A DNA stretch of 64,000 nt from Baekduia soli (lineage in GTDB: Bacteria; Actinomycetota; Thermoleophilia; Solirubrobacterales; Solirubrobacteraceae), in contig NZ_CP042430.1 in the NCBI RefSeq assembly GCF_007970665.1, positions 2,666,001 to 2,730,000 on the forward strand. Reading direction: 5' to 3'. Position 1 is the first letter of the stretch, and each line of letters opens with the position of its first letter. This document shows positions 31,650-61,542 of the stretch, in pieces. The position numbers and the translations under genes are program-made. Below the pieces are notes generated by a model. The model was not told the origin of the DNA and ran no database searches. It saw nothing but the letters and a program-made list of their open reading frames with translations.

Positions 31650-32414
31650 ATGGGTCGGGTCCCCCACGTCGAGGTGCAGCGCGTACGCGTCCCGAAGGCC
31701 TCCGACGTGTTCGCCGCCGAGCTGCGCGGCCGCATCCTGGACGGCGACCTCGAGCCCGGGGTCGCGCTGCCCAACGAGCGCGCGCTGGCCGAGGCTGCCG
31801 GGCTCAGCCGCACCGTCGTGCGCGAGGCCCTGCGCATCCTGGAGATCGAGGGGCTCGTCGTCACGCGGCCCGGGCGCGGCGGCGGGACCGTCGTCGACCG
31901 CCCCGACCCCCAGTCGCTGACGCGCTCGGTCGACATCTTCATCCGTGGCCGCGGCGTGCGCTTCCGCGAGCTGCTCGAGGCCCGCGAGCAGATCGAGCCG
32001 GCCTGCGCCGAGCTCGCCGCGCGCCACCGCACCGACGACGACCTGCGCGCGCTGGACGCCGCGACGGAGGCCGTGCGCGCGGTCGCCGCCGAGGTCCCGG
32101 CCTTCCTGACCGCCAACGCCGCGTGGCACGTGACGGTCGCGCGCATCAGCCACAACGAGCTGCTGGCCTCGTTCATGCGCGCCCTGTCGGACGCCGTCCG
32201 CGCGGCCACCGACATCGCCGACTTCAACTCCGACGAGGTCCGCGCCGGTGCGCTGCGCGCCCACGATCGGGTCGCGCGCGCGATCCGCGACGGCGACGGC
32301 GGCGCCGCCCGAGCGGCGATGGCCCACCACGTGGGCGCCTATCGCGAGCAGGTACTGAAGTACCCCGTGCCCGAGGAGCTCGGGCTCGAGCACGAGAGGG
32401 AGGAACGCCAGTGA
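31650..32414 (+). CDS. GntR/FadR-subfamily transcriptional regulator
   Basis: A 254-aa regulator. The N-terminal winged helix is ASDVFAAELRGRILDGDLEPGVALPNERALAEAAGLSRTVVREALRILEIEGLVVTRPGRGGGTVV. The C-terminal all-helical FCD-type domain has the expected Asp/His metal pattern (FLTANAAWHVTVARISHNELL, and HDRVARAIRDGD..AARAAMAHHV). FCD regulators usually sense carboxylate pathway intermediates. It is the first gene of the hyu/acyl-CoA operon and overlaps hyuA by 4 bp, so it probably autoregulates through the dyad in its own promoter. Confidence 0.9.
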   Translation: MGRVPHVEVQRVRVPKASDVFAAELRGRILDGDLEPGVALPNERALAEAAGLSRTVVREALRILEIEGLVVTRPGRGGGTVVDRPDPQSLTRSVDIFIRGRGVRFRELLEAREQIEPACAELAARHRTDDDLRALDAATEAVRAVAAEVPAFLTANAAWHVTVARISHNELLASFMRALSDAVRAATDIADFNSDEVRAGALRAHDRVARAIRDGDGGAARAAMAHHVGAYREQVLKYPVPEELGLEHEREERQ

Positions 32415-34447
32415 GCACGCTCGTCGGCATCGACGTCGGAGGCACCTTCACCGACCTGTTCCAGGTCGACGAGGAGGGCACGCCCCGCATCCTGAAGGTC
32501 CCCTCCACGCCGGAGGACCCGTCGATCGGCGTCATGAACGCCCTGACCGAGGCCGGGGCCTCCGGCGCGGAGCTCACGCAGTTCCTGCACGGCACGACCA
32601 TCGCCACCAACGCGCTCATCGAGCGCCGCGGCGCCGCCTGCGCGCTCATCACCACGCGCGGCTTCCGCGACGTGCTCGAGCTCGGCCGCCGCGACCGCCC
32701 GCACATCTACGGCCTGACCGGCAAGCACGTCCCACTCATCGCCCGCGACATGCGCTGGGAGGTCGACGAGCGCCTGGACCACGAGGGGCGCGTCCTGACC
32801 CCGCTGGACGAGGACCAGGTCCGCGCGCTGGCGCTGGAGCTGCGCGACGAGGGCCTGGAGACCGTCGTCGTCGCGTTCATCCACTCCTACCGCAACGCCG
32901 CCCACGAGGACCGCGCCCGCGAGATCCTGCTCGAGGTCCAGCCCGACTGGCACGTCGTGACCTCGTCCTCGGTGCTGCGCGAGTACTACGAGTTCGAGCG
33001 CACGAGCACCGCGGTCGTGCAGGGCTACCTCGAGCCGCTCGTCTCCCGCTACGCCGACCACCTCGTCACGCGCCTGGCGGACTGGGGCTTCACGCGCGAC
33101 GCGCTCATCATGCAGTCCAACGGCGGGCTCATCCCGGCCGCGCGGGCCGGCGAGCGCGCGAGCCACATGATCCGCTCGGGCCCCGCCGCCGGCGTCATCG
33201 CGGCGGTCAGCGTCGCAGCCGACGCCGGCTTCGACCGCGTGATCACCGGCGACATGGGCGGCACGAGCTTCGACGTGTCCATCAGCCTCGACGGCCGGCC
33301 GTCTGAGGCCGAGACGACGCTGCTGGACTTCCGGCTGCCCGTGCGGGTGCCGATGCTCGACGTCCGCACGATCGGCGCCGGCGGCGGCTCGATCGCCTGG
33401 ATCGACCGCGGCGGCATCCTGCAGGTCGGCCCGCGCAGCGCCGGGTCGGTTCCCGGCCCGGTCGCGTTCGGCCGCGGCGGGACCGAGCCGACGGTCAGCG
33501 ACGCCAACGTCGTGCTCGGCCGCATCAACGCCGAGGCGCCGATCGGTGCCGACGGCCGCGGACGCCTGGATCTGGAGGGCGCCCGGCGCGCGCTGGCCAT
33601 GCTCGGCGCCGAGTTCGGGATGGACGCCGAGGAGGCCGCCGACGCGGTGCTCACCGTCGTCAACACCCGCATGGCCGGCGAGATCCGGCTCATGACCGTC
33701 GAGCAGGGCCACGACCCGCGGGAGTTCGCGCTCGTGGCCTTCGGCGGGGCGGGGCCGCTGCACGGCGCCGCGCTGCTGCGCGAGATGGAGATCGGCACGA
33801 TGCTGCTGCCGGCCTTCCCCGGCGTGCTGTGCGCCATGGGCTGCACGGTGGCCGACATGCGCCACGACCTCTCCGAGACGATCGAGCGCGTGCTGCCCGC
33901 CGACGGCACACCCGGCCCCGACCGGCTGGACACCGAGGAGCTCGCAGCCGTCCTGCGCGCCCAGCGCGCCCACGGCGAGGACCAGCTGCGCCGCGACGAC
34001 GTCGACTTCGAGGAGGTCGAGATCCGTCACTTCGCCGACATGGCCTACCAGGGCCAGGTCCACCGGCTGCGCGTGCCGGTCCAGGCCGGCTGGGACGCCG
34101 AGCAGCTGCGCGCCGCGTTCGTGGCCCAGTACCAGGCCGAGTACGGCACCGAGCTCGGCGCGCTGTCGGTCGTCGTGGTCAACGCCCGCACCGCGGTCGT
34201 CGGGCGCCGCGCGCCGCTGCGCACGCCCGCCGGCGCATCGAGCTCGACCACGCCGCAGCCCCGCGAGCACCGGCGCGTGCGCTTCGACGACTGGCACGAG
34301 ACGCCGATCTACGCCCGGGCCGACCTCGCGCCGGGCGCCGAGCTGCAGGGCCCGCTCATCGTCGAGCAGGCCGACACGACCGCGGTGATCGAACCGGGCA
34401 TGACCGTCCGCGTCGACGCCGCCTCCAACCTGGTGGTGACGCGATGA
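32411..34447 (+). CDS. hyuA: hydantoinase/oxoprolinase/acetone-carboxylase family subunit A
   Basis: A 678-aa ATP-binding subunit. N-terminal GIDVGGTFTDLF is the ASKHA-type ATP-binding loop, followed by FLHGTTIATNALIERRGA, LITTRGFRDVLELGRRDRP and MQSNGGLIPAARA. The hydantoinase_A domain shows TGDMGGTSFDVS and IGAGGGSIAWID, and the end has VAFGGAGPLHGAALLREM. The family includes ATP-dependent N-methylhydantoin amidohydrolase, 5-oxoprolinase, acetone and acetophenone carboxylases. The acyl-CoA partners downstream favour a carboxylase or lactam-opening role, which is inference. GTG 32411 overlaps the gntR stop. Confidence 0.93.
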   Translation: MSTLVGIDVGGTFTDLFQVDEEGTPRILKVPSTPEDPSIGVMNALTEAGASGAELTQFLHGTTIATNALIERRGAACALITTRGFRDVLELGRRDRPHIYGLTGKHVPLIARDMRWEVDERLDHEGRVLTPLDEDQVRALALELRDEGLETVVVAFIHSYRNAAHEDRAREILLEVQPDWHVVTSSSVLREYYEFERTSTAVVQGYLEPLVSRYADHLVTRLADWGFTRDALIMQSNGGLIPAARAGERASHMIRSGPAAGVIAAVSVAADAGFDRVITGDMGGTSFDVSISLDGRPSEAETTLLDFRLPVRVPMLDVRTIGAGGGSIAWIDRGGILQVGPRSAGSVPGPVAFGRGGTEPTVSDANVVLGRINAEAPIGADGRGRLDLEGARRALAMLGAEFGMDAEEAADAVLTVVNTRMAGEIRLMTVEQGHDPREFALVAFGGAGPLHGAALLREMEIGTMLLPAFPGVLCAMGCTVADMRHDLSETIERVLPADGTPGPDRLDTEELAAVLRAQRAHGEDQLRRDDVDFEEVEIRHFADMAYQGQVHRLRVPVQAGWDAEQLRAAFVAQYQAEYGTELGALSVVVVNARTAVVGRRAPLRTPAGASSSTTPQPREHRRVRFDDWHETPIYARADLAPGAELQGPLIVEQADTTAVIEPGMTVRVDAASNLVVTR

Positions 34448-36243
34448 GCATCGACCCGATCACGCTGTCGGTCGTCCGCAGCAGCCTCGAGCAGATCTGC
34501 GACGAGATGGACCTGCTGCTCATCCGCTCGGCGATGTCGCCGATCATCTCCGAGACCAACGACTGCGCGCACGGCATCTACGACCCCCACACGGGCGAGA
34601 CGATCGCCCAGGGGCGGCTCGGCCTGCCGGTCTTCCTGGCCAACATGCAGTTCGCGGTGCAGTCGACGATCGCCGAGGCCCGGGCCACGGGCGGCTTCCG
34701 CCCCGGCGACGTGTGGATCCTCAACGACGTCTACCGCGGCGGCACGCACCTCAACGACGTCAACCTGGTCACGCCCGTCTTCGTCGGCGACGAGCTGTTC
34801 GCGCTGATCGCCAGCACGGGCCACTGGATGGACATCGGCGGCTCGGCGCCCGGCGGCTGGAACCCCGAGGCCCAGGACATCCACCAGGAGGGCGTGTTCA
34901 TCCCGGCCGTGCGGCTCTACGACGAGGGCCGCCGCAACGACGCGCTCGTGTCGATGATCCTCGCCAACCTGCGCCTCCCGCGCGAGATCCTCGGGGACCT
35001 CACGGCGATGGCCAGCGCCGTGCGCACCGGCCAGGACCGCCTCGGCCACGTCATCGACCACCATGGCCGCGACGTCGTCCGCGACTGCCTGACCGAGCTC
35101 ATCGACCGCTCCGAGCGCCAGATGCGCTCCTACATCTCCGACATCCCCGACGGCACCTACACGTACGTCGACAGCCTCGACAACGATGGCATCGTCGACG
35201 AGCCGATGAGGATCCAGGTCGAGATCGTCATCGCCGGCAGCGACATGACGATCGACTTCGCCGGCACGTCGCCGGCGGCGCGCGGGCCGCTGAACCTCGC
35301 GCGCAACTCGACGATCTCCATGTGCTACGTCGCGCTGAAGCACATCTTCCCCGACGTGCCCATCAACGGCGGGACGTTCCGGCCCGCGAGGGTGCTCGTG
35401 CCCGACGGCACGGTGACCTCGGCCGAGTACCCGTCGCCGGTCAGCGGCTACCTCGAGGTCGCCGGCCGCGTGCTCGACGTGATGTTCGGGGCCCTGGCGC
35501 CGGCGATCCCCGACCTCGTGCCCGCCGCGCCGTTCGGCACCACCGGCGTGGTGACCGTGGGCGGCGTGCACCCCGAGCGCGGGACGTACTACGTCGGCGT
35601 CTTCCCCTACCCCGGCGGCTACGGCGCCACCGCGGAGGGCGACGGCCTGGTGCACGGCAACACGCCGCAGTCCATGGCCAACTTCGTCGCCCTGGAGGCC
35701 TCCGAGCACCGCTACCCGGTCCGCTTCGACTGGTTCGCCCTGCGCGAGGACTCCGGCGGCGGCGGGCGTCACCGCGGCGGCGACGGCACGACCTACCGCA
35801 TCCGGGCGCTGGCCGACTGCGTCGTCTCCGTCCTGGGCGACCGCGCCGACGAGGCGCCGTTCGGGCTGCACGGCGGTACGCACGGCGCCCCCAACAGCGT
35901 GGAGCTGACGACGGGCGGGGAGACGTGGCGCCCGCCCATGCGCACCAAGCTGGCCAAGCAGGAGCTGACCGCCGGCGACGCGGTGACCGTCGCCTCGCCG
36001 GGCGGCGGCGGCTTCGGCGACCCGCTCGAGCGCGAGCTCGAGGCGGTCCAGAACGACCTCAACCTGGGCTACATCGCCCTCATGACGGCGCAGGACGTCT
36101 ACGGCGTCGTCGTGGCGAAGACCACCAAGATCGCCGGGCGGACCCGGTACGACCTCGATCCGCAGGGCACCGCGGAGCGGCGCGCGGAGCTGCGCCGTCA
36201 GCCGGCGCTCGCCGCGGACACCTCGACCATGGAGCAGACATGA
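34444..36243 (+). CDS. hyuB: hydantoinase/oxoprolinase/acetone-carboxylase family subunit B
   Basis: A 599-aa subunit that forms a complex with HyuA. Family motifs: ITLSVVRSSLEQICDEMDLLLIRSAMSPIISE at the N-terminus, LNDVYRGGTHLNDVNLVTPVF, STGHWMDIGGSAPGGWN, DFAGTSPAARGPLNLARNST, and the C-terminal ASPGGGGFGDPLERE. The length is usual for HyuB. It overlaps hyuA by 4 bp and the acyl-CoA dehydrogenase by 4 bp. No gamma subunit of acetone carboxylase is seen nearby. Reaction as for the A subunit: ATP-driven ring opening or carboxylation of an unknown substrate. Confidence 0.93.
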   Translation: MSIDPITLSVVRSSLEQICDEMDLLLIRSAMSPIISETNDCAHGIYDPHTGETIAQGRLGLPVFLANMQFAVQSTIAEARATGGFRPGDVWILNDVYRGGTHLNDVNLVTPVFVGDELFALIASTGHWMDIGGSAPGGWNPEAQDIHQEGVFIPAVRLYDEGRRNDALVSMILANLRLPREILGDLTAMASAVRTGQDRLGHVIDHHGRDVVRDCLTELIDRSERQMRSYISDIPDGTYTYVDSLDNDGIVDEPMRIQVEIVIAGSDMTIDFAGTSPAARGPLNLARNSTISMCYVALKHIFPDVPINGGTFRPARVLVPDGTVTSAEYPSPVSGYLEVAGRVLDVMFGALAPAIPDLVPAAPFGTTGVVTVGGVHPERGTYYVGVFPYPGGYGATAEGDGLVHGNTPQSMANFVALEASEHRYPVRFDWFALREDSGGGGRHRGGDGTTYRIRALADCVVSVLGDRADEAPFGLHGGTHGAPNSVELTTGGETWRPPMRTKLAKQELTAGDAVTVASPGGGGFGDPLERELEAVQNDLNLGYIALMTAQDVYGVVVAKTTKIAGRTRYDLDPQGTAERRAELRRQPALAADTSTMEQT

Positions 36244-37433
36244 GCGACACCCAGACGCGCGGCGCGATCCCCGAGGGCACGTGGGAGCTGCCGCATGAGC
36301 TGCAGCTGCTCGGCCAGACCGTGGCCGACTTCGTGCGCAAGGAGATCCTGCCCGAGGAGGCCAAGCTCGACACCGAGGCCTACAAGCTGCCCCCGGACGT
36401 GCTGGCGCGCGTGCAGGCCGACGCCAAGGCGGCGGGCCTGTGGTGCGTGCAGACGCCCGAGGAGCACGGCGGCGCGGGCCTGAGCCTGCTGGCGCAGTGC
36501 GTGGTGGCCGAGGAGGCCGCCAAGTGCCGGATGGGCGCCTACGTGCCCGCGGGCGCGGCGTTCGGCTGGGATCCGCCCAACGTGATCTTCAAGGGCACCC
36601 AGGACCAGATCGACCGCTACGCCAACCCCGACGTGCTCGGCGAGAAGACCTACGTCGCGATCAGCGAGCCCAACGGCGGCGCCGATCCGGGCCGCTCGAT
36701 CCAGTCGACGGCCAAGCGCGACGGCGACCACTACATCCTCAACGGCCAGAAGACCTGGATCACCGGCGGCGACGCGTCGCGCTGGGGCGTGGTGTTCGCC
36801 CGCACCGGCGGCCCGGGGCGCAAGGGGATCAGCTGCTTCGTGGTCGAGCCGGAGTGGGAGGGCGTGACGGTCGAGACGATCCCGGTCATCCGGCCGCTGT
36901 CGCCGGTGGAGATGTTCTTCGACAACGTCAAGGTGCCGGTCGAGAACCTGCTGGGCGAGGAGGGCCGCGGGTTCGAGCTGGCCGAGAGCTGGCTCGTCCA
37001 CGGGCGCGTGCCCTACGCGGCGGGGACCATCGGCGTCGCGCAGGCCGCGCTGCAGATGGCCATCGACTACTCCAAGGAGCGCTCGACGTTCGGCAAGCGC
37101 CTGGCCCAGCGCCAGGCCATCCAGTGGATGCTGGCCGACTCCGACATCGAGCTGCGCGCCGCGCGGCTGCTGACCTACCAGGCGGCCTGGAAGGCCGACG
37201 CGGGCAAGAACTACAAGCTGGAGGCCTCCATCGCCAAGGTCTACGCCACCGAGACGGCCGGGCGCGTCGTGGACCGCGCGATGCAGGTGCTCGGCGGCAT
37301 GGGCGTGGCCAAGGAGCTCCCGCTGGAGCGCTGGTACCGCGAGATGCGCATCAAGCGCATCGGCGAGGGCCCGTCGGAGATCCACCGCATGGTCATCGCG
37401 CGCGAGCTCCTCGGCGCCGCGGCCAAGGACTGA
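36240..37433 (+). CDS. acyl-CoA dehydrogenase
   Basis: A 397-aa FAD-dependent acyl-CoA dehydrogenase, introducing an alpha-beta double bond into an acyl-CoA. It shows YVAISEPNGGADPGRSIQSTA, GQKTWITGGDASRWGVVFA, MFFDNVKVPVENLLGEEGRGFEL, SKERSTFGKRLAQRQAIQWMLAD and the end QVLGGMGVAKELPLERWYREMRIKRIGEGPSEIHRMVIAREL, with the catalytic Glu in IGEGPSE. Such enzymes hand electrons to ETF. The gene lies between hyuB (4-bp overlap) and an enoyl-CoA hydratase (4-bp gap), giving consecutive beta-oxidation steps. Confidence 0.93.
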   Translation: MSDTQTRGAIPEGTWELPHELQLLGQTVADFVRKEILPEEAKLDTEAYKLPPDVLARVQADAKAAGLWCVQTPEEHGGAGLSLLAQCVVAEEAAKCRMGAYVPAGAAFGWDPPNVIFKGTQDQIDRYANPDVLGEKTYVAISEPNGGADPGRSIQSTAKRDGDHYILNGQKTWITGGDASRWGVVFARTGGPGRKGISCFVVEPEWEGVTVETIPVIRPLSPVEMFFDNVKVPVENLLGEEGRGFELAESWLVHGRVPYAAGTIGVAQAALQMAIDYSKERSTFGKRLAQRQAIQWMLADSDIELRAARLLTYQAAWKADAGKNYKLEASIAKVYATETAGRVVDRAMQVLGGMGVAKELPLERWYREMRIKRIGEGPSEIHRMVIARELLGAAAKD

Positions 37434-37437
37434 GACG

Positions 37438-38211
37438 GTGGGCGTCGAGTTCGAGGTCGACGAGGGCGTCGCGCTCATCACGATCAACCGCCCCGAGCGG
37501 ATGAACGCGATGGACGCCGACGCCTACCAGGCGCTGTCGGAGGCGTGGAAGCGGGTGCGCGACGACGGTGCGATCCGCGCCGCGGTCATCACGGGTGCCG
37601 GCGACCGTGCGTTCAGCACGGGCGCCGACATCAAGAGCTTCCTCACGGCGCCGTCCGATCTGTCGGAGTTCTGGCTGACCCAGAAGGACCAGCTGCTCAA
37701 CCGTGGCCTGGAGGTCTTCAAGCCCATCATCGCCGCCGTCAACGGCTACTGCCTGGGCGGCGGGATGACGCTGCTGCTGGCCACCGACATCCGCGTCGCG
37801 GCCGAGCACGCCTCCTTCGGGCTGTCGGAGGTCAAGCGCGGCGTCATCGCCGGCAACGGCGGCACCCAGCGGGTCATGGGCCAACTGCCCCACGCCGTCG
37901 GCATGGAGCTGCTGCTCACCGGCGACCGCATCGACGCGGCCACCGCCGAGCGTTGGGGCCTGGTCAACAAGGTCGTGCCGATGGAGGGCCTGCTCGACGC
38001 CGCGATGGAGTACGCCCAGCGCATCGTCGTCAACGCCCCGCTGGCCGTCCAGGCGGCCAAGGAGCTGGCGCTGCGCTCGCGCGACATGGGCCTCGACGAG
38101 GGCCTGCGGCTCGAGCAGACGATGAACCGCCTGCTCATGGTCACCGAGGACGCCAAGGAGGGCCCCGCGGCCTTCGCCGAGAAGCGCGCCCCGCAGTTCA
38201 AGGGGCGCTAG
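37438..38211 (+). CDS. enoyl-CoA hydratase/isomerase family protein
   Basis: A 257-aa crotonase-fold enzyme starting at GTG 37438. The oxyanion-hole motifs are AFSTGADIKSF and NGYCLGGGMTLLLATDIRVAAEHASFGLSEVKRGVIAGNGGTQRVMGQLPHAVGMELLLTGDRI. It would hydrate the enoyl-CoA made by the adjacent dehydrogenase. Gap of 4 bp to the dehydrogenase and 2 bp to the CoA-transferase. Some crotonases do other chemistry (hydrolysis, isomerisation), so hydratase activity is inferred from context. Confidence 0.9.
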   Translation: MGVEFEVDEGVALITINRPERMNAMDADAYQALSEAWKRVRDDGAIRAAVITGAGDRAFSTGADIKSFLTAPSDLSEFWLTQKDQLLNRGLEVFKPIIAAVNGYCLGGGMTLLLATDIRVAAEHASFGLSEVKRGVIAGNGGTQRVMGQLPHAVGMELLLTGDRIDAATAERWGLVNKVVPMEGLLDAAMEYAQRIVVNAPLAVQAAKELALRSRDMGLDEGLRLEQTMNRLLMVTEDAKEGPAAFAEKRAPQFKGR

Positions 38212-38213
38212 GC

Positions 38214-39416
38214 GTGGGCGAGGGAAGGCACCCGCTGGAGGGCATCGTCGTCCTCGACCTCGGCCAGATCTACAACGCGCCCTACGCGACGCTGCTGCTG
38301 GCACTGGGCGGCGCCCACGTCATCAAGGTCGAGCCCAAGCACGGCGAGAACCTGCGCGGCCGCACCCAGGGCGCCGGGGCGGGCGCGCCGTTCGTGATGC
38401 TCAACTCCAACAAGCAGGGCATCACGATCGACCTGCGCACCGACCGCGGCCGCGAGCTGCTGCTGCAGCTCGCCGACCGCGCCGACGTGCTCGTCGAGAA
38501 CTTCCGTCCCGGCGTGATGGAGAAGCTCGGCGCCGGCCCCGACGTCGTGCGCGCGCGCAACCCGCGGATCATCTACGGCTCGGGCTCGGGCTTCGGGCAC
38601 TCCGGGCCCTACCGCGACTTCGCCGCGATGGACCTCACGATCCAGGCCATGGCCGGGATCATGAGCGTGACGGGCTTCCCCGACCGCCCGCCGGTCAAGG
38701 CCGGCCCGGCGGTCGCGGACTTCTTCGGCGGCATCCACCTCTACGGCGCGATCGTCACCGCGCTGTTCGACCGCGAGCGCACGGGGGAGGGGCGCACGGT
38801 CGAGGCCTCGATGTTCGAGTCGGTCTACCCGTCGCTCATGTCGAGCCTGGGGCTCTTCTTCGGTGCGGGGCAGGGGGAGTCGCCGATGCGCACGGGCAAC
38901 CGGCACGCCGGGCTGGCCGAGGCGCCCTACAACGTCTACCCGGCCGCCGACGGGCACGTCGCGATCATCTGCGTCAGCGACGCGCACTGGCGCGGGCTGG
39001 CCGGGCTGCTCGGCCGCCCCGAGCTCGCCGACCATCCCGACTACGCGACCCGCCGCGCGCGCGTGGAGCGCATCGACGAGGTCGACGAGCTGGTCGGCGC
39101 CTTCACGTCCCGGCACGACCGCGACCCGCTGTGCGCGCTGCTGCGCGAGCACCGCGTCCCGTGCGCGCCCGTGCGCGAGCTCGGCGAGGTCGTCGCCGAC
39201 GAGCACCTGCACGCCCGCGGCATGCTCCAGGAGATCGAGCATCCCGAGCTCGGGACGGTCACCGTCCCGCACACCCCGCTGCGCTACGACGGCGAGGAGC
39301 GCACGCCGCTGGTCCTCGCGCCGGGGCTGGGCGAGCACAACGAGGCGGTCCTCTTGGACTGGCTCGGGCTGGACCCCGCGGAGTACGCATCCCTCGTCGA
39401 GCAGGAGGTCATCTAG
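38214..39416 (+). CDS. CaiB/BaiF (family III) CoA-transferase
   Basis: A 400-aa family III CoA-transferase that moves CoA between carboxylic acids. Features: VVLDLGQIYNAPYATLLLALGGAHVIKVEPKHGENLRG, MLNSNKQGITIDLRTDRGRELLLQLADRADVLVENFRPGVMEKLG, and the catalytic Asp in RDFAAMDLTIQAMAGIMSVTG. C-terminal AEAPYNVYPAADGHVAIICVSDAHWRGL is typical. GTG 38214 is 2 bp after the hydratase. It probably activates the pathway acid or recycles CoA, complementing the ATP-dependent ligase downstream. Confidence 0.92.
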   Translation: MGEGRHPLEGIVVLDLGQIYNAPYATLLLALGGAHVIKVEPKHGENLRGRTQGAGAGAPFVMLNSNKQGITIDLRTDRGRELLLQLADRADVLVENFRPGVMEKLGAGPDVVRARNPRIIYGSGSGFGHSGPYRDFAAMDLTIQAMAGIMSVTGFPDRPPVKAGPAVADFFGGIHLYGAIVTALFDRERTGEGRTVEASMFESVYPSLMSSLGLFFGAGQGESPMRTGNRHAGLAEAPYNVYPAADGHVAIICVSDAHWRGLAGLLGRPELADHPDYATRRARVERIDEVDELVGAFTSRHDRDPLCALLREHRVPCAPVRELGEVVADEHLHARGMLQEIEHPELGTVTVPHTPLRYDGEERTPLVLAPGLGEHNEAVLLDWLGLDPAEYASLVEQEVI

Positions 39417-40541
39417 ATGCGCGGCAAGGCCGTCATCGCCGGATTCGGGCACACCGCCCACGGGAAGCTGCCCGGGCGCACGCCGCTCTCGATGACCGTC
39501 GAGGCGGTCGCGGGCGCACTGGCCGACGCCCAGGTCGAGAAGGACGCCGTCGACGCCGTCTTCGTCAAGTACCCCACCTCGGGATTCCAGACGATGTTCG
39601 GCCAGACCGTCGCCGAAGCCCTGGGGCTGCAGCCGCGCATCGGCGGCGTCTGGGACCAGGGCGGTGCGACGAACATCAGCATGATCTCGTTCGCCGCGAT
39701 GGCCATCGAGCACGGCCAGTGCGAGGTGGCGCTCGTCACGACCGCCGACAACCCGCGCACGGGGACCCGGCAGGCCTACGAGCGCGGATGGGGCGACGAT
39801 GCCGTCTACGGCTGGTTCGGGACGCCCGCCGGCTACGCGATGATCGCCCAGCGCCACATGGCCGAGTACGGGACCACTCACGAGCAGCTCGGCGCGATCG
39901 CCGTCGCCTGCCGCAAGCACGGGGCGGCCAACCCCGCCGCGCACCTGCGCAAGCCGCTGACCATGGACGAGTACATGGACGCGGCGTGGGTCGTCGAGCC
40001 GCTGCGCCGCGACGACTGCTGCCTGATCTCCGACGGTGGCGCGGCCGTCGTGGTCATGAGCGCCGAGCGCGCCGCGCAGCTCGGCGTGCCCGACCCCGTG
40101 CCGATCCTCGGCTTCGGGCAGGGCCAGACCTCCTACGAGGTCCCGCTGCGCCCCACGCTGACCGAGACGCAGGCGGCGATCTCCGCCCGGACCGCGTTCG
40201 CGATGGCCGGCATCGGCCCCGCCGACGTCGACGTCGCGCAGATCTACGACTGCTTCACCCCGACCGTCCTGCTGGCCCTGGAGGACTACGGGTTCTGCAG
40301 GAAGGGCCAGGGCGGCAGCTTCGTGGAGGACGGGGCGCTGGAGGTCGGCGGCGCGCTGCCGCTGAACACGAGCGGCGGGCTGCTGTCGGAGACCGGCATG
40401 CCGGGCATGCAGCTCGTCATCGAGGGCGTGCGGCAGATCCGCGGCACGTCGACGACGCAGGTCCCCGACGCCGGGATCTGCGTGGTGGCCAACCAGGGAG
40501 GCATCATGCACACCCACTCGACGCTGGTGCTGGGCCGATGA
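39417..40541 (+). CDS. thiolase-like (SCP-x/Ltp2-type) protein without an obvious nucleophilic Cys
   Basis: A 374-aa thiolase-fold protein starting directly after the CoA-transferase stop. It has VIAGFGHTAHGKLPGRTPLSM, VDAVFVKYPTSG, the loop DQGGATNISMISFAAMAIEHGQCEVALV and late NTSGGLLSETGMPGMQLVIEGVRQIRGT. In classical thiolases the loop carries the acylated Cys (GACASG) and the late motif an H in GHPxGA; both are missing. That is the state of Ltp2-type proteins, which with a DUF35 partner act as retro-aldolases in steroid side-chain degradation. The DUF35 gene is next, so a heteromeric aldolase or acyltransferase is likely. Confidence 0.87.
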   Translation: MRGKAVIAGFGHTAHGKLPGRTPLSMTVEAVAGALADAQVEKDAVDAVFVKYPTSGFQTMFGQTVAEALGLQPRIGGVWDQGGATNISMISFAAMAIEHGQCEVALVTTADNPRTGTRQAYERGWGDDAVYGWFGTPAGYAMIAQRHMAEYGTTHEQLGAIAVACRKHGAANPAAHLRKPLTMDEYMDAAWVVEPLRRDDCCLISDGGAAVVVMSAERAAQLGVPDPVPILGFGQGQTSYEVPLRPTLTETQAAISARTAFAMAGIGPADVDVAQIYDCFTPTVLLALEDYGFCRKGQGGSFVEDGALEVGGALPLNTSGGLLSETGMPGMQLVIEGVRQIRGTSTTQVPDAGICVVANQGGIMHTHSTLVLGR

Positions 40542-40590
40542 GGTCGAACGGAGCCGGCGCGCCGGTCGACCGGCGAGGAGGACACGTTCG

Positions 40591-41010
40591 ATGAGCGAGA
40601 CGCCCGACACCACCATCGACCTGCCCGAGCCGTCCGAGCTGCTCGCCGCGCACCGCGGGGCGCTCGCCGACGGCCGGCTGACGTTCCAGCGCTGCTCGGC
40701 CTGCCAGAACGCCTGGCTGCCCCCGCGCGACCGCTGCCCGCGCTGCCTGGCCGACACATGGGCGTGGGAGACCGCCTCGGGCCGCGCCACCGTCGTGAGC
40801 TGGGTCGTCTACCACCGCGCCTACCACCCGGCCTTCGCCGACCGCGTCCCCTACAACGTGGTCCTCGTCGACCTCGAGGAGGGCCCGCGGATGCTGTCGA
40901 CGGTCATCGGGATCGACGGCGGCGAGGGGCTGGCCATCGACCTCCCGCTGCAGGCCGAGGTCGGCCACGAGGGCGAGGTCCCCGTCGCCCGGTTCCGGCT
41001 CGCCACATGA
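40591..41010 (+). CDS. DUF35 Zn-ribbon/OB-fold protein
   Basis: A 139-aa partner protein. After a helical N-terminus it has a rubredoxin-like zinc ribbon, CSACQNAWLPPRDRCPRC (four Cys at about residues 36, 39, 50 and 53), then an OB-fold (GRATVVSWVVYHRAYHPAFADRVPYNVVLVDLEEGPRMLSTVIG). DUF35 proteins bind thiolase-like partners and shape acyl-CoA binding. GAGGAGG lies 8 nt before ATG 40591. It overlaps the following SDR by 4 bp. Confidence 0.92.
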   Translation: MSETPDTTIDLPEPSELLAAHRGALADGRLTFQRCSACQNAWLPPRDRCPRCLADTWAWETASGRATVVSWVVYHRAYHPAFADRVPYNVVLVDLEEGPRMLSTVIGIDGGEGLAIDLPLQAEVGHEGEVPVARFRLAT

Positions 41011-41798
41011 GCGAGCCGGTGGCGGGCGCGCGCGGCGCGGCCATCGTCACCGGCGCCGGCCAGGGCATCGGGCGACGCATCGCGGTCCGGCTGGCCGCCG
41101 AGGGCCACGCCGTCGCGCTGGCCGCGCGCTCGGCCGGCGCGCTGGACGAGGCGGCCGCCGAGATCGCCGCGGCCGGCGGCCGCGCGCTCGCCGTGCCGAC
41201 CGACGTCACCGACGCCGCGCAGGTCGACCACCTGGCCGCGATCGCCGAGGCCGAGCTGGGCCCGGTCGCGGTCGTCGTCAGCGCCGCGGGCATCGCCGGG
41301 CCCACCGCGCCGCTGTGGGAGATCACGCCCGAGCAGTGGGAGGAGACGTTCGCGGTCAACGTGACGGGGACCTACCTCCTGTGCCGCGCGGCGCTGCCGG
41401 CGATGCTGCAGCGCGGGGCGGGCAGCGTGGTCGTCATCGGCTCGGTCACCGGCAAGCGGCCGCTGCTGGGCCGCACGCCCTACGCGGCCAGCAAGACCGC
41501 GCTCATCGGCCTCGTGCGCACGCTGGCCTGGGACGCGGGCCCGCACGGCGTGCGCGTCAACCTCGTCTCGCCCGGGCCGATCAGCGGCGATCGGCTGGAC
41601 CGCGTCATCGCGGCCCAGGCGCAGGCGCTGGGGGTCGAGCCCGAGGTGGTCCGCGACGGGATGCTCGAGGGCACCCCGCTGCGGCGGCTGACCAGCGCCG
41701 ACGAGGTGGCCGACGCCGTGCTCTACCTGGCCGGGGACGGCGCGCGTGCCGTCACCGGCGACGACCTCAACGTGGCGAGTGGATGGGTGATGTCATGA
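41007..41798 (+). CDS. short-chain dehydrogenase/reductase (FabG-like)
   Basis: A 263-aa SDR: GAAIVTGAGQGIGRRIAVRLAAEGHAV, VSAAGIAGPTAPLWE (NAG strand varied to SAAG), VVIGSVTGKRPLLGRTPYAASKTALIGLVRTLA with Ser and YxxxK, and VNLVSPGPISGDRLDR. It ends ARAVTGDDLNVASGWVMS. In the operon it could oxidise the 3-hydroxyacyl-CoA made by the hydratase. It overlaps DUF35 and the acyl-CoA ligase genes by 4 bp each. Confidence 0.88.
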   Translation: MSEPVAGARGAAIVTGAGQGIGRRIAVRLAAEGHAVALAARSAGALDEAAAEIAAAGGRALAVPTDVTDAAQVDHLAAIAEAELGPVAVVVSAAGIAGPTAPLWEITPEQWEETFAVNVTGTYLLCRAALPAMLQRGAGSVVVIGSVTGKRPLLGRTPYAASKTALIGLVRTLAWDAGPHGVRVNLVSPGPISGDRLDRVIAAQAQALGVEPEVVRDGMLEGTPLRRLTSADEVADAVLYLAGDGARAVTGDDLNVASGWVMS

Positions 41799-43408
41799 CC
41801 GACGCCGACTGGGCGCAGCTGCGCGAGCTGCCGGGGGACGAGACCCCGCTGCAGATGTTCGACCGCACGGTGGGCGAGCTCGGCGAGCGACCCCTGCTGT
41901 ACAGCTTCGAGACGCCGCTGCCCGCCGCGCAGGTCGCCGAGCTGGTCGACGGCGTGGCCGCCGGCCTGGCCGCGATGGGCGCCGGGCGCGGCGACCGCGT
42001 CGGGCTCTACCTGCAGAACGACCCGCAGTTCGTCATCGCCATGCTCGCGGCGTGGCGGATCGGCGCCGTCGCGGTGCCGTGCAACCCCATGCTGCGCGAG
42101 CGCGAGCTCGCCCACCACCTCCACGACGCCGGCGCCACGCTGCTCGTCACGCTCGACGAGCTGTACCGCGACGTCGCCCGCGCCGCGGTGCAGGCCGACG
42201 GCATCCGCGTGATCACGACGTCGGCGCGCGCGCTGGCCGGCGCGGAGGCTCCGGTGCCCGAGGGCACCACCGACCTGCTGGCGCTCGCGCGCGAGCACGC
42301 CGGCGCGCCCGTGCCCGGGCCGGCGCCCGGGCCCGGCGACGTGGCGGTGCTCACCTACACCTCGGGGACCACCGGGCCGCCCAAGGGCGCGATGAACACC
42401 CACGGCAACATCGCGTTCGGCTCCCGGGTCTACCGCGACGCGCTCGGCGTCGGCCCGCAGGACATCATCCTGGGCATCGCCCCGCTGTACCACGTGACCG
42501 GGCTGGTCGGGCACATCGGGCTGTCGGTCGCCTCCGGGGCGTCGATGGTCCTCGCGCACCGCTTCGACGCGGCCGAGGCCGCCCGGCTGGCCGAGCACCA
42601 CCGCACGACGGTGACGATCGCGGCGATCACCGCCTACCTGGCCATCGCCAACGACGAGCAGGCACGCGGCCACGACCTCGGCGCGATGCGCCGCACCTAC
42701 AGCGGCGGCGCACCGATCCCGCCCGCCACGGTCCGCGTCATCGCGCAGGCCACCGGCATGGCCGTCAAGCCGGTGTACGGCCTGACGGAGACCACCGGGC
42801 CGACGCACCTGTGCCCCGTCGACCGGGAGGCGCCCGTCGACGCGGGCTCCGGCGCGCTGTCGGTCGGCCTCGCCGTGCCCGACACGTCCGTGAGGATCCT
42901 CGGCGACGACGGGACCGAGCTGCCCCACGGCGAGGTCGGCGAGGTCTGCATCCGCGGCCCCCAGGTCGTGCCGGGCTACTGGGAGCGCCCGGAGGAGACC
43001 GCCCACGCGATCCCCGGCGGCGAGCTGCACACCGGCGACGTCGGCGTCGTCGACGCCGACGGCTGGCTCTACCTCGTCGACCGCCGCAAGGACATGATCG
43101 TGGCGTCGGGGTTCAAGGTGTGGCCGCGCGAGGTCGAGGACGTGCTCTACGAGCACGCGGCGGTCCACGAGGCCGCGGTCATCGGGGTGCCCGACGACTA
43201 CCGCGGCGAGACCGTGTGGGCCTACGTGAGCCTGAAGGCGGGCGCCACATGCACCCCGGAGGAGCTCAAGGCCCATTGCAAGGAGCGGCTGGCCGCCTAC
43301 AAGTACCCGCGGGTCGTGCACGTGCTGCCCGAGCTGCCCAAGACGCCGACGGGCAAGATCCTGCGCCGCGAGCTGCGCGATGCGGCCGTGCCGCCGCCCG
43401 TCGGCTAG
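41795..43408 (+). CDS. AMP-dependent acyl-CoA synthetase/ligase
   Basis: A 537-aa ANL-family ligase that activates a carboxylic acid with ATP and CoA. P-loop motif VLTYTSGTTGPPKGAMNTHGNI, the hinge-side TYSGGAPIPPATVRVI, VYGLTETTGPTHLCP, adenylate-binding LHTGDVGVVDADGWLYLVDRRKDMIVASGFKVWPREVED and C-terminal Lys in LPKTPTGKILRREL are all present. It overlaps the SDR start by 4 bp. It is likely the entry enzyme of the acyl-CoA pathway encoded here. The acid is unknown. Confidence 0.93.
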   Translation: MTDADWAQLRELPGDETPLQMFDRTVGELGERPLLYSFETPLPAAQVAELVDGVAAGLAAMGAGRGDRVGLYLQNDPQFVIAMLAAWRIGAVAVPCNPMLRERELAHHLHDAGATLLVTLDELYRDVARAAVQADGIRVITTSARALAGAEAPVPEGTTDLLALAREHAGAPVPGPAPGPGDVAVLTYTSGTTGPPKGAMNTHGNIAFGSRVYRDALGVGPQDIILGIAPLYHVTGLVGHIGLSVASGASMVLAHRFDAAEAARLAEHHRTTVTIAAITAYLAIANDEQARGHDLGAMRRTYSGGAPIPPATVRVIAQATGMAVKPVYGLTETTGPTHLCPVDREAPVDAGSGALSVGLAVPDTSVRILGDDGTELPHGEVGEVCIRGPQVVPGYWERPEETAHAIPGGELHTGDVGVVDADGWLYLVDRRKDMIVASGFKVWPREVEDVLYEHAAVHEAAVIGVPDDYRGETVWAYVSLKAGATCTPEELKAHCKERLAAYKYPRVVHVLPELPKTPTGKILRRELRDAAVPPPVG

Positions 43409-43411
43409 GTT
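43406..43411 (+). promoter_or_regulatory. TAGGTT -10 box overlapping the ligase stop codon
   Basis: TAGGTT includes the TAG stop of the acyl-CoA ligase and ends 6 nt before ATG 43418, so the SDR can also be made from its own leaderless mRNA. Confidence 0.45.
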
Positions 43412-43417
43412 GCGCCG

Positions 43418-44200
43418 ATGGAGCTGGGTCTGCGCGACAGGATCTGCGTCGTCACCGGCGCGAGCAAGGGCATCGGGCTGGAGGTCAGCCGCCGGCTCGT
43501 CGGCGAGGGCGCCCGCGTGCTCATGGTCGCCCGGACGCAGGACGCGCTGGCCGCGGCCGCCGAGGAGGTCGGCGCCGAGTGGCTCGCCGCCGACGTCACC
43601 GACCCCGACTGCGACGAGCGCATCATCGCCACGTGCGCCGAGCAGATGGGCGGCATCGACGTCCTGGTCAACAACGCGGGGACTTCGCGGGTCACGGCGC
43701 TGGAGGACCTCACCGACGACGACTGGCGCGACCAGCTCGAGCTCAACGTGATGGCCTCGATGCGCCTCATGCGCGCCGCCGCCCCACGGATGGCCGAGCG
43801 CGGCTGGGGGCGCATCGTCAACGTCGCCTCCTCGTCGGGCAAGCGGCCGTCGAACACCAACGGCGCCTACTCGGTCGCCAAGGCCGCCCAGCTCTCGCTC
43901 TCGCGCGTCTTCGCCGACGCCTACGCCCCGCTGGGCGTGCTCGTCAACGCCGTCACGCCGGGCCCCGTGGCCACCCCGCTGTGGACCGCGCCGGGCGGCA
44001 TGGGGGAGCAGACCGCGGCGCTGCAGGGCGTCACGCTGCAGGAGGCGCTGGACGGTGTCGGCGCGGGCGTGCCGATCAAGCGGCTGGGGGAGCCGGGGGA
44101 GATCGCCGACGTCATCGTCTTCCTGTGTTCGGAGCGCTCGTCCTACGTGACCGGCGCGGCCTGGTCGGCCGACGGCGGCCGCGTCGCGATCTTCATCTGA
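43418..44200 (+). CDS. short-chain dehydrogenase/reductase
   Basis: A 260-aa SDR: RICVVTGASKGIGLEVSRRLVGEGARVLMVART, VLVNNAGTSRVTALEDL, IVNVASSSGKRPSNTNGAYSVAKAAQLSLSRVFAD with Ser and YxxxK, and VNAVTPGPVATPLW. C-terminus SSYVTGAAWSADGGRVAIFI. It differs in sequence from the SDR upstream, so the two probably act on different intermediates. It is 9 bp after the ligase and has its own -10 box; the emfourin gene follows 7 bp later. Confidence 0.88.
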   Translation: MELGLRDRICVVTGASKGIGLEVSRRLVGEGARVLMVARTQDALAAAAEEVGAEWLAADVTDPDCDERIIATCAEQMGGIDVLVNNAGTSRVTALEDLTDDDWRDQLELNVMASMRLMRAAAPRMAERGWGRIVNVASSSGKRPSNTNGAYSVAKAAQLSLSRVFADAYAPLGVLVNAVTPGPVATPLWTAPGGMGEQTAALQGVTLQEALDGVGAGVPIKRLGEPGEIADVIVFLCSERSSYVTGAAWSADGGRVAIFI

Positions 44201-44207
44201 GTCCGCC

Positions 44208-44528
44208 GTGGCCCGCGCCGACGCACGATTGTGGCTGCGGCGCAGCGGCGGCCTGGCCGGCGTGGCCCTGGAGGCCGACCTGGACACGAGCACCCTGGAC
44301 GAGACCGAGCGCGCGGCCGTGCTCGGCGCCCTGGACATCGCCGACCTGCCCGCGCTGGCCGGCCGGCCCGCCACACCGCCGGTGCCCGACGCCTTCACCT
44401 ACGAGCTGCGCGTGCGGCGCGGCGGCGCCGAGCACCGCCTCGCCTTCGCCGAGCGCGACGCGCCCGCCGCCCTGGGACCGGTGGTCGCCGCGCTGCGCGC
44501 CCGCGCGCGCCCGGCGGGCAGACACTGA
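44208..44528 (+). CDS. emfourin-type inhibitor of M4 metallopeptidase
   Basis: A 106-aa protein matching emfourin, the protealysin inhibitor: LWLRRSGGLAGVALEADLDTSTLDETERAAVLGALD at the N-terminus and FTYELRVRRGGAEHRLAFAERDAPAALGPVVAAL at the C-terminus. It has no signal peptide. The R-SGG-L-AGV opening is the part that in studied emfourins enters the peptidase active site. Start GTG 44208. The gene lies 38 bp ahead of the M4 peptidase, the usual inhibitor-enzyme order. Small size and divergent sequence leave some doubt. Confidence 0.83.
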   Translation: MARADARLWLRRSGGLAGVALEADLDTSTLDETERAAVLGALDIADLPALAGRPATPPVPDAFTYELRVRRGGAEHRLAFAERDAPAALGPVVAALRARARPAGRH

Positions 44529-44566
44529 GCGGTTGCGCCGCGGGGCCGCGCGGGGATCATCCCGCC

Positions 44567-45610
44567 ATGACCCGGCACGGCCCCTCGCACCGGATCCTGC
44601 CGCCCGGCCTGCTGTACCGCCTGGCCCGCACCGGGGACGCCGAGGTGCGCCGTGCCGCGCTGGACACCCTCGCGCTCGACGGGCGCCTGCGCCTCGCGCG
44701 CGCCGAGGCGGCGGGCCGCCGTGGCGGCCGCGCGGCGCAGCCCGTCACCCACGCGCGGGTCGGCGGGCGGCCCAACCGCGTGATCTACGACCAGCAGCAC
44801 GCCGAGACCCAGACGCCGGGGGTCGTCGTGCGCGCCGAGGGACAGCCCGCCCCCGCCGACCCCGCCGCCAACCAGGCCTACGACGGCCTGGGCGCGACCT
44901 ACGACTTCTGGTGGAGCGTCTTCGGCCGCGACTCGATCGATGGCCAGGGCATGATGCTGCAGGGCCTCATCCACTTCGGCGAGGCCTATGACAACGCGTT
45001 CTACGACGGGGCCGGGCACATGGTCTTCGGCGACGGCGACGGGCGGCTGCTCACGCAGACGACCGCGGGCGTGGACGTCATCGGCCACGAGCTGACCCAC
45101 GGCATCACGCAGCACGAGGCCAACCTGGTGTACTCGGGGCAGTCCGGCGCGCTGAACGAGTCGATCTCCGACGTCTTCGGGGTCCAGGTCAAGCAGCGCC
45201 TGCTCGGCCAGGACACCGCGGCCTCGGACTGGCTCATCGGCGCCGACATCGTCGGGCCCGAGCTCGCGCCCGCGCTGCGGTCCATGCGGGCGCCGGGGAC
45301 CGCCAACCGCCACGACGACCAGCCCGCGACGATGGACGGCTACGTCGCCGGCGGCGACGTGCACACGAACTCGGGCATCCCCAACCACGCGTTCTACGTC
45401 GCCGCGACCACGCTCGGCGGCCACGCCTGGGACGCGGCGGGCCCGATCTGGTACGCCGCGCTGACCGACGCGAGCCTGTCGCCGAACGCCACGTTCACGG
45501 CCTTCGCGGCGCTCACGGTGCGCCACGCCGTCCAGCGCCACGGCGCCACGAGCGCCGAGGCCGAGGCGGTGCGCGCGGGTTGGGAGGCCGTCAAGGTCGC
45601 GGCGGCCTGA
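44567..45610 (+). CDS. protealysin-like M4 family metallopeptidase
   Basis: A 347-aa thermolysin-family zinc protease. There is no signal peptide; a short propeptide with the HRILPPGLLYRLA motif is that of protealysin-type precursors. The mature domain begins near residue 60 and has HELTH (His174, Glu175, His178), the third zinc ligand Glu198 in LNESISDVFG, and NSGIPNHAFYVAA with the conserved catalytic-side residues. It is predicted to work in the cytoplasm or after non-classical release, held in check by the adjacent emfourin. Confidence 0.93.
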   Translation: MTRHGPSHRILPPGLLYRLARTGDAEVRRAALDTLALDGRLRLARAEAAGRRGGRAAQPVTHARVGGRPNRVIYDQQHAETQTPGVVVRAEGQPAPADPAANQAYDGLGATYDFWWSVFGRDSIDGQGMMLQGLIHFGEAYDNAFYDGAGHMVFGDGDGRLLTQTTAGVDVIGHELTHGITQHEANLVYSGQSGALNESISDVFGVQVKQRLLGQDTAASDWLIGADIVGPELAPALRSMRAPGTANRHDDQPATMDGYVAGGDVHTNSGIPNHAFYVAATTLGGHAWDAAGPIWYAALTDASLSPNATFTAFAALTVRHAVQRHGATSAEAEAVRAGWEAVKVAAA

Positions 45611-57944: not shown

Positions 57945-58457
57945 ATGACGATCTCCACCCTGCCGGTCGTGCTCCACGTCAACGGTGACGAACGGCGCCT
58001 CGATCTCGACACCCGGACCACGCTGCTGGACGCCCTGCGCGAGGACCTCGGCCTCACCGGGGCCAAGAAGGGCTGCGACCACGGCCAGTGCGGCGCGTGC
58101 ACGGTGCTCGTCGACGGCCGGCGCGTGAACGCGTGCCTGGCGCTCGCGGTCGCCCACGACGGCGCGGAGGTCACCACGATCGAGGGGCTGGCCGACGGGG
58201 AGGACCTGCACCCGATGCAGGAGGCGTTCCTCGAGCACGATGCCTACCAGTGCGGCTACTGCACGCCGGGCCAGATCTGCAGCGCGGTCGGCATGCTCGA
58301 CGAGCTGCGCCGGGGCTGGCCCAGCGCCGCGACGCCCGACGTCGCCGCCGCGCCGGCGCTCGACGGCGACGAGGTGCGCGAGCGCATGAGCGGCAACCTG
58401 TGCCGCTGCGGCGCCTACATGAACATCGTGCCGGCGATCATGGAGGCCGGCGCATGA
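57945..58457 (+). CDS. paoA: [2Fe-2S] subunit of a PaoABC-like molybdenum aldehyde oxidoreductase
   Basis: A 170-aa electron-transfer subunit of the xanthine oxidase family. The plant-type cluster motif is KKGCDHGQCGACTVLVDGRRVNAC and the second cluster uses CGYCTPGQIC and SGNLCRCGAYMNI. It overlaps the FAD subunit gene by 4 bp. The N-terminus lacks an obvious Tat signal, unlike E. coli PaoA, so the complex is probably cytoplasmic. ATG 57945. Confidence 0.9.
   Translation: MTISTLPVVLHVNGDERRLDLDTRTTLLDALREDLGLTGAKKGCDHGQCGACTVLVDGRRVNACLALAVAHDGAEVTTIEGLADGEDLHPMQEAFLEHDAYQCGYCTPGQICSAVGMLDELRRGWPSAATPDVAAAPALDGDEVRERMSGNLCRCGAYMNIVPAIMEAGA

Positions 58458-59436: not shown

Positions 59437-59440
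<4 letters not shown>
58454..59440 (+). CDS. paoB: FAD subunit of the aldehyde oxidoreductase, with an extra Fe-S cluster motif
   Basis: A 328-aa FAD-binding subunit. VFLGGGTNLVDLMKLGV and LRNQATVGGNLLQRTRCAYF bind FAD. The block RTRCAYFTD...KPCNKRAPGSGC and EHCVATHPSDMAVALAAL includes the Cys residues that in PaoB and 4-hydroxybenzoyl-CoA reductase hold an additional [4Fe-4S] cluster, which distinguishes it from ordinary CO/xanthine dehydrogenase subunits. It overlaps both neighbours by 4 bp. Confidence 0.9.

Positions 59441-61542
<2,102 letters not shown>

What the first reader, a model, noticed from the sequence alone, without database searches (positions are those of the whole stretch)
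31650..44200. Unassigned catabolic operon combining HyuAB with a full acyl-CoA pathway
A FadR-type regulator heads hyuA, hyuB, acyl-CoA dehydrogenase, crotonase, CoA-transferase, thiolase-like + DUF35, SDR, acyl-CoA ligase and SDR with almost no gaps. By analogy with acetophenone degradation, HyuAB could be an ATP-dependent carboxylase (or open a lactam ring), with the product activated to a CoA ester and cleaved by the thiolase-like/DUF35 pair. I know of no described pathway with exactly this set.
Basis: inference. Interest (0 to 1): 0.75.

Follow-up and report, generated by a model that had tools for sequence, protein, structure and literature searches.

The report
Ring-opening plus retro-aldol catabolic operon
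An 11-gene bacterial operon, conserved across phyla, appears to open a nitrogen-containing ring at the cost of ATP, load the product onto coenzyme A and split it by a retro-aldol reaction with an enzyme that only looks like a thiolase; the substrate is unknown.

Summary
The operon is real: 11 co-directional, nearly overlapping genes at 31650-44200, confirmed by family searches. It is not a one-off. The core gntR-hyuA-hyuB-ACAD-ECH-CaiB-THL-DUF35 recurs in Thermoleophilia relatives, Rhizobiales, Acetobacteraceae and Burkholderiales, usually with a Liv-type ABC transporter; the SDR and ligase genes are local additions.

Two parts of the interpretation change. First, the "thiolase" lacks the nucleophilic Cys (Gly-Gly instead) and carries an invariant YDCF motif, that of the steroid side-chain retro-aldolase Sal. 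It groups with Sal/Ltp2, not thiolases, and has a ChsH2-type DUF35 partner, so it most likely makes an aldehyde or ketone plus an acyl-CoA. Second, HyuAB looks like a two-subunit ATP-dependent cyclic amidohydrolase, not a ketone carboxylase: no gamma or alpha-prime subunit, short chains, and a tree position on the N-methylhydantoinase side. It forms an uncharacterised clade with a dedicated CaiB partner.

Best reading: import, ATP-driven ring opening, CoA transfer, dehydrogenation, hydration, retro-aldol cleavage. The nearest known logic is anaerobic indoleacetate degradation, but the mutase, its GGG dehydrogenase motif and the thiolase are all missing. No activity was measured and the substrate is open. 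Verdict: new variant of a known kind.

The parts
31650..32414 (+). gntR: GntR/FCD-type regulator, first gene of the operon
   Evidence: NCBIfam GntR hits; orthologues (45-59%) at L009, L010, L011, L013, L093, L143, L144
32411..34447 (+). hyuA: ATP-binding (ASKHA) subunit of the hydantoinase/oxoprolinase family, 678 aa; DVGGTFTD at 8, DMGGTSFD at 281, GSVPGP at 345
   Evidence: Pfam PF01968/PF05378/PF19278; motifs; own clade 100/99 in the tree
34444..36243 (+). hyuB: metal-binding subunit, 599 aa; ligands D40, H102, D105, H127 conserved
   Evidence: Pfam PF02538; conservation; model pLDDT 84, best match CapB Z 38.9, ApcB-type subunit 37.3
36240..37433 (+). acyl-CoA dehydrogenase with catalytic Glu376 in an invariant GEG motif
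   Evidence: Pfam; GEG invariant in 14 sequences
37438..38211 (+). crotonase-type enoyl-CoA hydratase with both catalytic Glu (131, 157)
   Evidence: Pfam PF00378; both Glu invariant in 15 sequences
38214..39416 (+). CaiB/class III CoA-transferase, Asp169 invariant
   Evidence: Pfam PF02515; orthologue stays with hyuAB even on the Methylobacterium plasmid
39417..40541 (+). thiolase-like protein, predicted acyl-CoA retro-aldolase (YDCF at 277-280; Gly82-Gly83 at the thiolase Cys position)
40591..41010 (+). stand-alone DUF35 (zf-ChsH2 + OB_ChsH2_C) partner of the aldolase
   Evidence: Pfam PF12172, PF01796; four zinc-ribbon Cys invariant
41007..41798 (+). SDR 1 (accessory; orthologue only in the same-family locus L092)
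41783..43408 (+). AMP-forming acyl-CoA ligase (accessory; orthologue only in L092); an alternative start lies at 41792
   Evidence: Pfam PF00501
43418..44200 (+). SDR 2 (accessory; no orthologue at the other loci)

Best explanation
A self-contained catabolic pathway for a cyclic amide-type compound (lactam, cyclic imide or ureide) of unknown identity. HyuAB phosphorylates the ring carbonyl with ATP and hydrolyses the ring to a free carboxylic acid. CaiB (or, in this lineage, the ligase) makes the CoA thioester. The acyl-CoA dehydrogenase introduces an alpha,beta double bond and the crotonase hydrates it to a 3-hydroxyacyl-CoA. The THL/DUF35 complex then splits this by retro-aldol cleavage into an aldehyde or ketone plus acetyl-CoA (or propionyl-CoA if the thioester is alpha-methylated). 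The SDRs would oxidise or reduce the carbonyl product. Shown here: gene content, conserved linkage, and conserved catalytic residues. Inferred: every reaction, the order of steps and the substrate class.
For: Core module conserved across phyla. In THL, Gly replaces the nucleophilic Cys and YDCF is invariant in the module sequences, matching CtSal Tyr302/Cys304, whose mutation abolishes aldolase activity, and the CtSal Gly that rules out thiolysis (PMC12329534). THL splits from true thiolases 100/100 and falls with Ltp2/Sal; the top structure matches are the Ltp2-ChsH2(DUF35) and Sal-Shy(DUF35) aldolases, Z 48.0 and 47.4. No 3-hydroxyacyl-CoA dehydrogenase belongs to the conserved core. ACAD Glu376, both ECH Glu and CaiB Asp169 are invariant. 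HyuAB is a two-gene enzyme with 673-679 and about 590-599 aa subunits, conserved ATP and metal motifs, and a tree position on the N-methylhydantoinase side. caiB-hyuA-hyuB stay adjacent on the Methylobacterium plasmid without the rest; there a divergent operon carries a MaoC hydratase (RipB-like) and a CitE/RipC-like lyase, a plausible non-orthologous replacement of the hydration and cleavage steps. In L149/L150 the module sits next to a different HyuAB lineage with an aminotransferase, consistent with an N-containing substrate.
Against: No substrate or activity is known. The module also occurs without HyuAB (L145, L146, L147, L153), so HyuAB is not obligatory for it. Fold comparison alone does not separate hydrolase from carboxylase (CapB Z 38.9 against the acetophenone carboxylase subunit 37.3). 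No characterised enzyme lies inside the operon's HyuA clade, and the family's substrate range cannot be read from sequence (PMC5214803). Runner-up structures for THL include a true thiolase at Z 46.5, nearly tied. A 3-hydroxyacyl-CoA dehydrogenase-like gene lies divergently next to the operon in L093.
Confidence: 0.5

Rival explanations
1. HyuAB is an ATP-dependent ketone carboxylase: it carboxylates a ketone, possibly the ketone released by the retro-aldolase, to a beta-keto acid, which CaiB activates.
For: HyuB model is nearly as close to the acetophenone carboxylase subunit (Z 37.3) as to CapB (38.9). The retro-aldolase could produce a ketone. BKACE genes, which act on beta-keto acids, accompany several loci.
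Against: No gamma, alpha-prime or epsilon subunit gene; short subunits; HyuA is 39% identical to N-methylhydantoinase but 33% and 28% to ApcC and AcxB and is separated from them in the tree.
Confidence: 0.13
2. Thiolytic version: THL/DUF35 is a genuine thiolase and an SDR supplies the 3-oxoacyl-CoA, so the operon is ordinary beta-oxidation after ring opening.
For: SDRs are encoded in the window and L092; DUF35 pairs also with true thiolases such as BbsAB and the archaeal thiolase.
Against: Neither the nucleophilic Cys nor the GHP histidine nor the HD[AC]F histidine is present in any of the 14 module sequences; L012, whose HyuA is the sister branch, has all three. SDRs are not part of the conserved core.
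Confidence: 0.12
3. Dicarboxylate-like variant: the ring-opened acid is a succinyl- or methylsuccinyl-type compound, and the module runs as methylsuccinyl-CoA to mesaconyl-CoA to a methylmalyl-type CoA to a glyoxylate-type aldehyde plus an acyl-CoA, HyuAB having opened an imide or pyrrolidinone ring.
For: ACAD GEG motif is the one reported for methylsuccinyl-CoA dehydrogenase (PMC8360864); CaiB's NCBIfam hits include succinyl-CoA:mesaconate CoA-transferase, below cut-off; the plasmid locus uses RipB/RipC-like hydratase and lyase.
Against: The CaiB, hydratase and lyase family scores are below equivalog cut-offs; the GEG motif is only suggestive of alpha-substituted or bulky substrates; the substrate pocket was not modelled.
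Confidence: 0.12
4. Co-transcribed but separate functions: HyuAB handles an unrelated cyclic amide and the acyl-CoA module degrades a branched acid on its own.
For: The module occurs without HyuAB at four loci, and the genome holds about 33 HyuA genes, most in other contexts.
Against: The orthologous HyuAB and module are linked in at least seven other genomes from two phyla, and a non-orthologous HyuAB is linked in two more.
Confidence: 0.13

Closest known systems
Anaerobic indoleacetate (iaa) pathway of Aromatoleum (hydantoinase-like IaaCE, CoA-transferase IaaL, mutase IaaGH, dehydrogenase IaaF)
   Same: HyuAB-type ATP-dependent lactam opening followed by class III CoA transfer and acyl-CoA oxidation in one gene cluster
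   Different: No B12 mutase; dehydrogenase has GEG, not GGG; cleavage enzyme is Sal-like, not a thiolase; the IaaC sequence could not be compared
Sal/Ltp2 steroid side-chain retro-aldolases with DUF35 partners
   Same: Thiolase fold, Gly for the nucleophilic Cys, YDC motif (as in Sal), ChsH2-type DUF35 partner, preceded by dehydrogenase and hydratase
   Different: Separate clade; stand-alone DUF35, crotonase instead of MaoC hydratase; single ACAD; linked to HyuAB and CaiB; substrate presumably small
Caprolactamase CapAB and N-methylhydantoinase (ATP-dependent cyclic amidohydrolases)
   Same: Two-part HyuA/HyuB architecture, ATP motifs, Asp-His-Asp-His metal site
   Different: 36-39% identity in HyuA; CapB Tyr136 aligns with Trp139; different pathway downstream
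Acetophenone and acetone carboxylases
   Same: Homologous alpha/beta subunits and similar HyuB fold
   Different: Additional subunits absent; shorter chains; distant in the tree

Membership tests
ATP-dependent cyclic amidohydrolase (hydantoinase/lactamase) | Only two subunits (alpha, beta), no gamma subunit gene | tested here: met
   No gene in the operon resembles a gamma subunit; the only small protein is zf-ChsH2/OB_ChsH2_C
ATP-dependent cyclic amidohydrolase (hydantoinase/lactamase) | ASKHA ATP motifs and Asp/His/Asp/His metal site | tested here: met
   compared with CapAB residues in PMC8453981; also conserved in carboxylases, so not discriminating
ATP-dependent cyclic amidohydrolase (hydantoinase/lactamase) | ATP-dependent ring hydrolysis | not testable with these tools
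   needs purified enzyme
Acetophenone/acetone carboxylase | Extra gamma (and alpha-prime, epsilon) subunits in the operon | tested here: not met
   gene content of window and orthologous loci
Acetophenone/acetone carboxylase | HyuA groups with ApcC/AcxB | tested here: not met
   tree: separated by supported branches
5-oxoprolinase | HyuA and HyuB fused in one chain of about 1290 aa (eukaryotic form) | tested here: not met
   separate genes
5-oxoprolinase | Clusters with characterised 5-oxoprolinases | tested here: inconclusive
   no verified 5-oxoprolinase sequence was available; the operon clade excludes the fused group around N-methylhydantoinase
Sal-type acyl-CoA retro-aldolase | Catalytic Tyr and Cys of the YDC[YF] motif | tested here: met
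   invariant Y277 and C279 in all module sequences
Sal-type acyl-CoA retro-aldolase | Gly at the position of the thiolase nucleophilic Cys | tested here: met
   Gly82-Gly83
Sal-type acyl-CoA retro-aldolase | Belongs to the Sal clade | tested here: not met
   own 14-member clade (97/99) beside Sal and Ltp2
Sal-type acyl-CoA retro-aldolase | DUF35 fused to a MaoC hydratase | tested here: not met
   stand-alone 139 aa DUF35
Canonical or SCP2 thiolase | Nucleophilic Cys and catalytic His residues | tested here: not met
   absent in all module sequences, present in L012
Indoleacetate (iaa) pathway | B12-dependent mutase IaaGH in the cluster | tested here: not met
   none seen in the operon or the orthologous loci inspected; L012/L156, a sister HyuA, has one
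Indoleacetate (iaa) pathway | Dehydrogenase IaaF with GGG active-site motif | tested here: not met
   GEG invariant (PMC8360864)

The most novel reading that the evidence does not exclude
An undescribed, horizontally spread degradation pathway in which ATP-driven opening of a cyclic amide is coupled to a CoA-bound dehydrogenation-hydration-retro-aldol sequence. It would use a third, non-steroid clade of DUF35-dependent aldolases.
Probability: 0.45. Interest if true: 0.68.

Novelty: new variant of a known kind. Interest (0 to 1): 0.5.

Why it matters
It would extend DUF35-dependent acyl-CoA aldolases, characterised so far in steroid side-chain degradation, to small-molecule catabolism. It gives a residue-level rule for re-annotating 'thiolase/lipid-transfer protein' genes. 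It also defines a HyuAB subfamily with a fixed metabolic partner, a foothold in a family whose many paralogues (about 33 in this genome) cannot be assigned from sequence.

Tried and rejected
Ketone carboxylase: rejected on subunits, length and tree. Ordinary thiolase: rejected on catalytic residues. iaa operon: rejected on mutase, dehydrogenase motif and cleavage enzyme. Steroid side-chain pathway: disfavoured because the hydratase is a crotonase, the DUF35 stands alone and there is a single ACAD. A shared GntR operator upstream of the operon and its orthologues was not found; one FadR-like palindrome was seen only at L009. Fold search of HyuB did not separate hydrolase from carboxylase. Literature searches for a pathway with this gene set found none, and a search on AtuA returned only unrelated Portuguese texts. 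BKACE neighbours reach NCBIfam cut-offs for 3,5-dioxohexanoate (L145, L094) or 3-oxoadipate (L150) cleavage; too inconsistent between loci to name the substrate.
Full report
Observation. The operon is as described. Eleven + strand genes run from 31650 to 44200 with gaps of -4,-4,-4,4,2,0,49,-4,-16,9 bases, and all families were confirmed. The regulator is GntR/FCD-type. The window lies in a 5.21 Mb single-contig genome (G000). That genome carries 36 matches to the HyuA domain, about 33 genes once split ones are joined.

Conservation. A scan with HyuA gave 58-63% identical relatives in Proteobacteria, well above the 43-51% of the next group. At three of these loci, and in two order-level relatives, the same neighbours follow: HyuB, ACAD, ECH, CaiB, THL and DUF35 (the Acidisphaera locus continues on a second contig). 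A THL-based search, not biased towards HyuAB, found nine further loci in Rhizobiales and Burkholderiales draws. Two carry the orthologous HyuAB (L143, L144). Two carry a different HyuAB lineage (L149, L150). Four carry none within the stretch fetched (L145, L146, L147, L153), and one contig is too short to tell (L148). The operon is patchy: 3 of 201 genomes in the order have a HyuA this close, and no other genome of the same genus does. That suggests horizontal transfer, though no transfer test was made. SDR1 and the ligase are shared only with the same-family locus L092, and SDR2 with none. Liv-type ABC transporters adjoin most orthologous loci, and an AtuA/AtuA_ferredoxin pair adjoins several.

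The thiolase-like protein. Its PDB sequence relatives include Ltp2 and a YDCY protein (9myr) that the fold search identifies as Sal. In all 14 module sequences used for the alignment the thiolase nucleophile is Gly and the motif is YDCF; the GHP histidine is missing too. The L012 comparison protein has all the canonical thiolase residues. In Sal, Tyr302 and Cys304 of YDCY are essential and a Gly at the Cys position rules out thiolysis (PMC12329534). A tree splits the module proteins, Ltp2, Sal and 4u4e from true thiolases with 100/100 support; the module proteins form their own clade (97/99; bootstrap not fully settled; Ltp2 and Sal are long branches). The model (pLDDT 82.5) matches Ltp2-DUF35 (Z 48.0, rmsd 2.3, 360 aligned) and Sal-DUF35 (47.4, 2.3, 366), but thiolases follow closely (46.5), so fold alone is not proof. 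The DUF35 is Pfam zf-ChsH2/OB_ChsH2_C. The conserved core contains no 3-hydroxyacyl-CoA dehydrogenase, which a thiolase would need; L093 has such a gene divergently beside the operon. I put retro-aldolase at about 0.8.

HyuAB. ATP motifs and metal ligands are intact (against CapAB in PMC8453981). By the criteria of PMC5214803, gene organisation and subunit length point to the hydantoinase branch. In a 59-sequence tree the operon HyuA proteins form a clade (100/99) inside a 24-row group with no characterised member. This group lies on the N-methylhydantoinase side (41 rows, 100/99), apart from CapA, ApcC and AcxB. HyuA identity is 39% to N-methylhydantoinase, 36% to CapA, 33% to ApcC and 28% to AcxB. 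The HyuB fold comparison (pLDDT 84.4) does not discriminate: CapB 38.9, ApcB-type 37.3, NMHase 33.4, acetone carboxylase 32.3. The nearest paralogue in the same genome is only 47% identical, so this is not a recent local duplication. Hydrolase rather than carboxylase: about 0.75.

Pathway logic. CaiB stays next to HyuAB even on the Methylobacterium aquaticum plasmid, where the other module genes are absent. There a divergent operon supplies a RipB-like MaoC hydratase and a RipC/CitE-like lyase, neither reaching cut-off. This looks like replacement of the same hydration and cleavage steps by other families. It supports the order ring opening, CoA transfer, dehydrogenation, hydration, cleavage; the order itself is inference. 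The dehydrogenase GEG motif (Glu376 kept) is that reported for methylsuccinyl-CoA dehydrogenase, and loss of the Tyr is linked there to alpha-substituted or bulky substrates (PMC8360864). That hints at, but does not show, an alpha-branched thioester, which would release propionyl-CoA rather than acetyl-CoA. An aminotransferase beside the L149/L150 modules fits a nitrogen-containing substrate.

Comparison with known systems. The iaa pathway shares lactam opening by a HyuAB-type enzyme and CoA transfer (PMC8453981, PMC8360864), but its mutase and GGG dehydrogenase are absent here. L012/L156, whose HyuA is sister to the operon clade (99/96), does have a B12 mutase, MeaB and a true thiolase. So two cleavage chemistries appear downstream of related HyuAB enzymes. 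That locus may be iaa-like, but this was not tested, because no IaaC sequence was available.

Verdict. A real, conserved, unassigned catabolic operon. The substrate remains unknown.

Noticed in passing
whole genome G000: About 33 hyuA genes (36 domain matches) in a 5.2 Mb genome, in many contexts; three appear split between frames (near 2379370, 2796208 and 4509986).
   Followed up: partly
window 44229-45610: An Emfourin-family gene directly upstream of an M4 thermolysin-type peptidase gene, the arrangement expected of a peptidase and its inhibitor.
   Followed up: partly
window 57945-61542: Three-gene molybdenum hydroxylase (2Fe-2S, FAD and MoCo subunits), a type of enzyme that can turn N-heterocycles into lactams; no direct link to the operon shown.
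   Followed up: partly
window 26077-29287: Amidohydrolase, PEP mutase/isocitrate lyase-family and cyclase-family genes in a row on the + strand shortly upstream of the operon.
   Followed up: partly
L143, L144, L098, L100, L103; own genome L127: AtuA plus AtuA_ferredoxin pairs beside HyuAB-linked clusters (Pfam-tested at L144 and, ferredoxin-like part only, L127; others read by eye); function unknown.
   Followed up: partly
L156 and L012 (Bradyrhizobiaceae MAG): Cluster with B12 mutase, MeaB, true thiolase, DUF35, ligase, Liv transporter and the sister HyuAB, possibly an indoleacetate-type pathway.
   Followed up: partly
L009 around 7986-8963: The ACAD of the Comamonadaceae MAG lacks an internal stretch after about residue 82, an assembly fault or a decayed gene.
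   Followed up: no
L149 and L150: The acyl-CoA module sits beside a HyuAB of another lineage, with an IlvE-like aminotransferase, Ldh_2 dehydrogenase and a 3-oxoadipate-type BKACE.
   Followed up: partly
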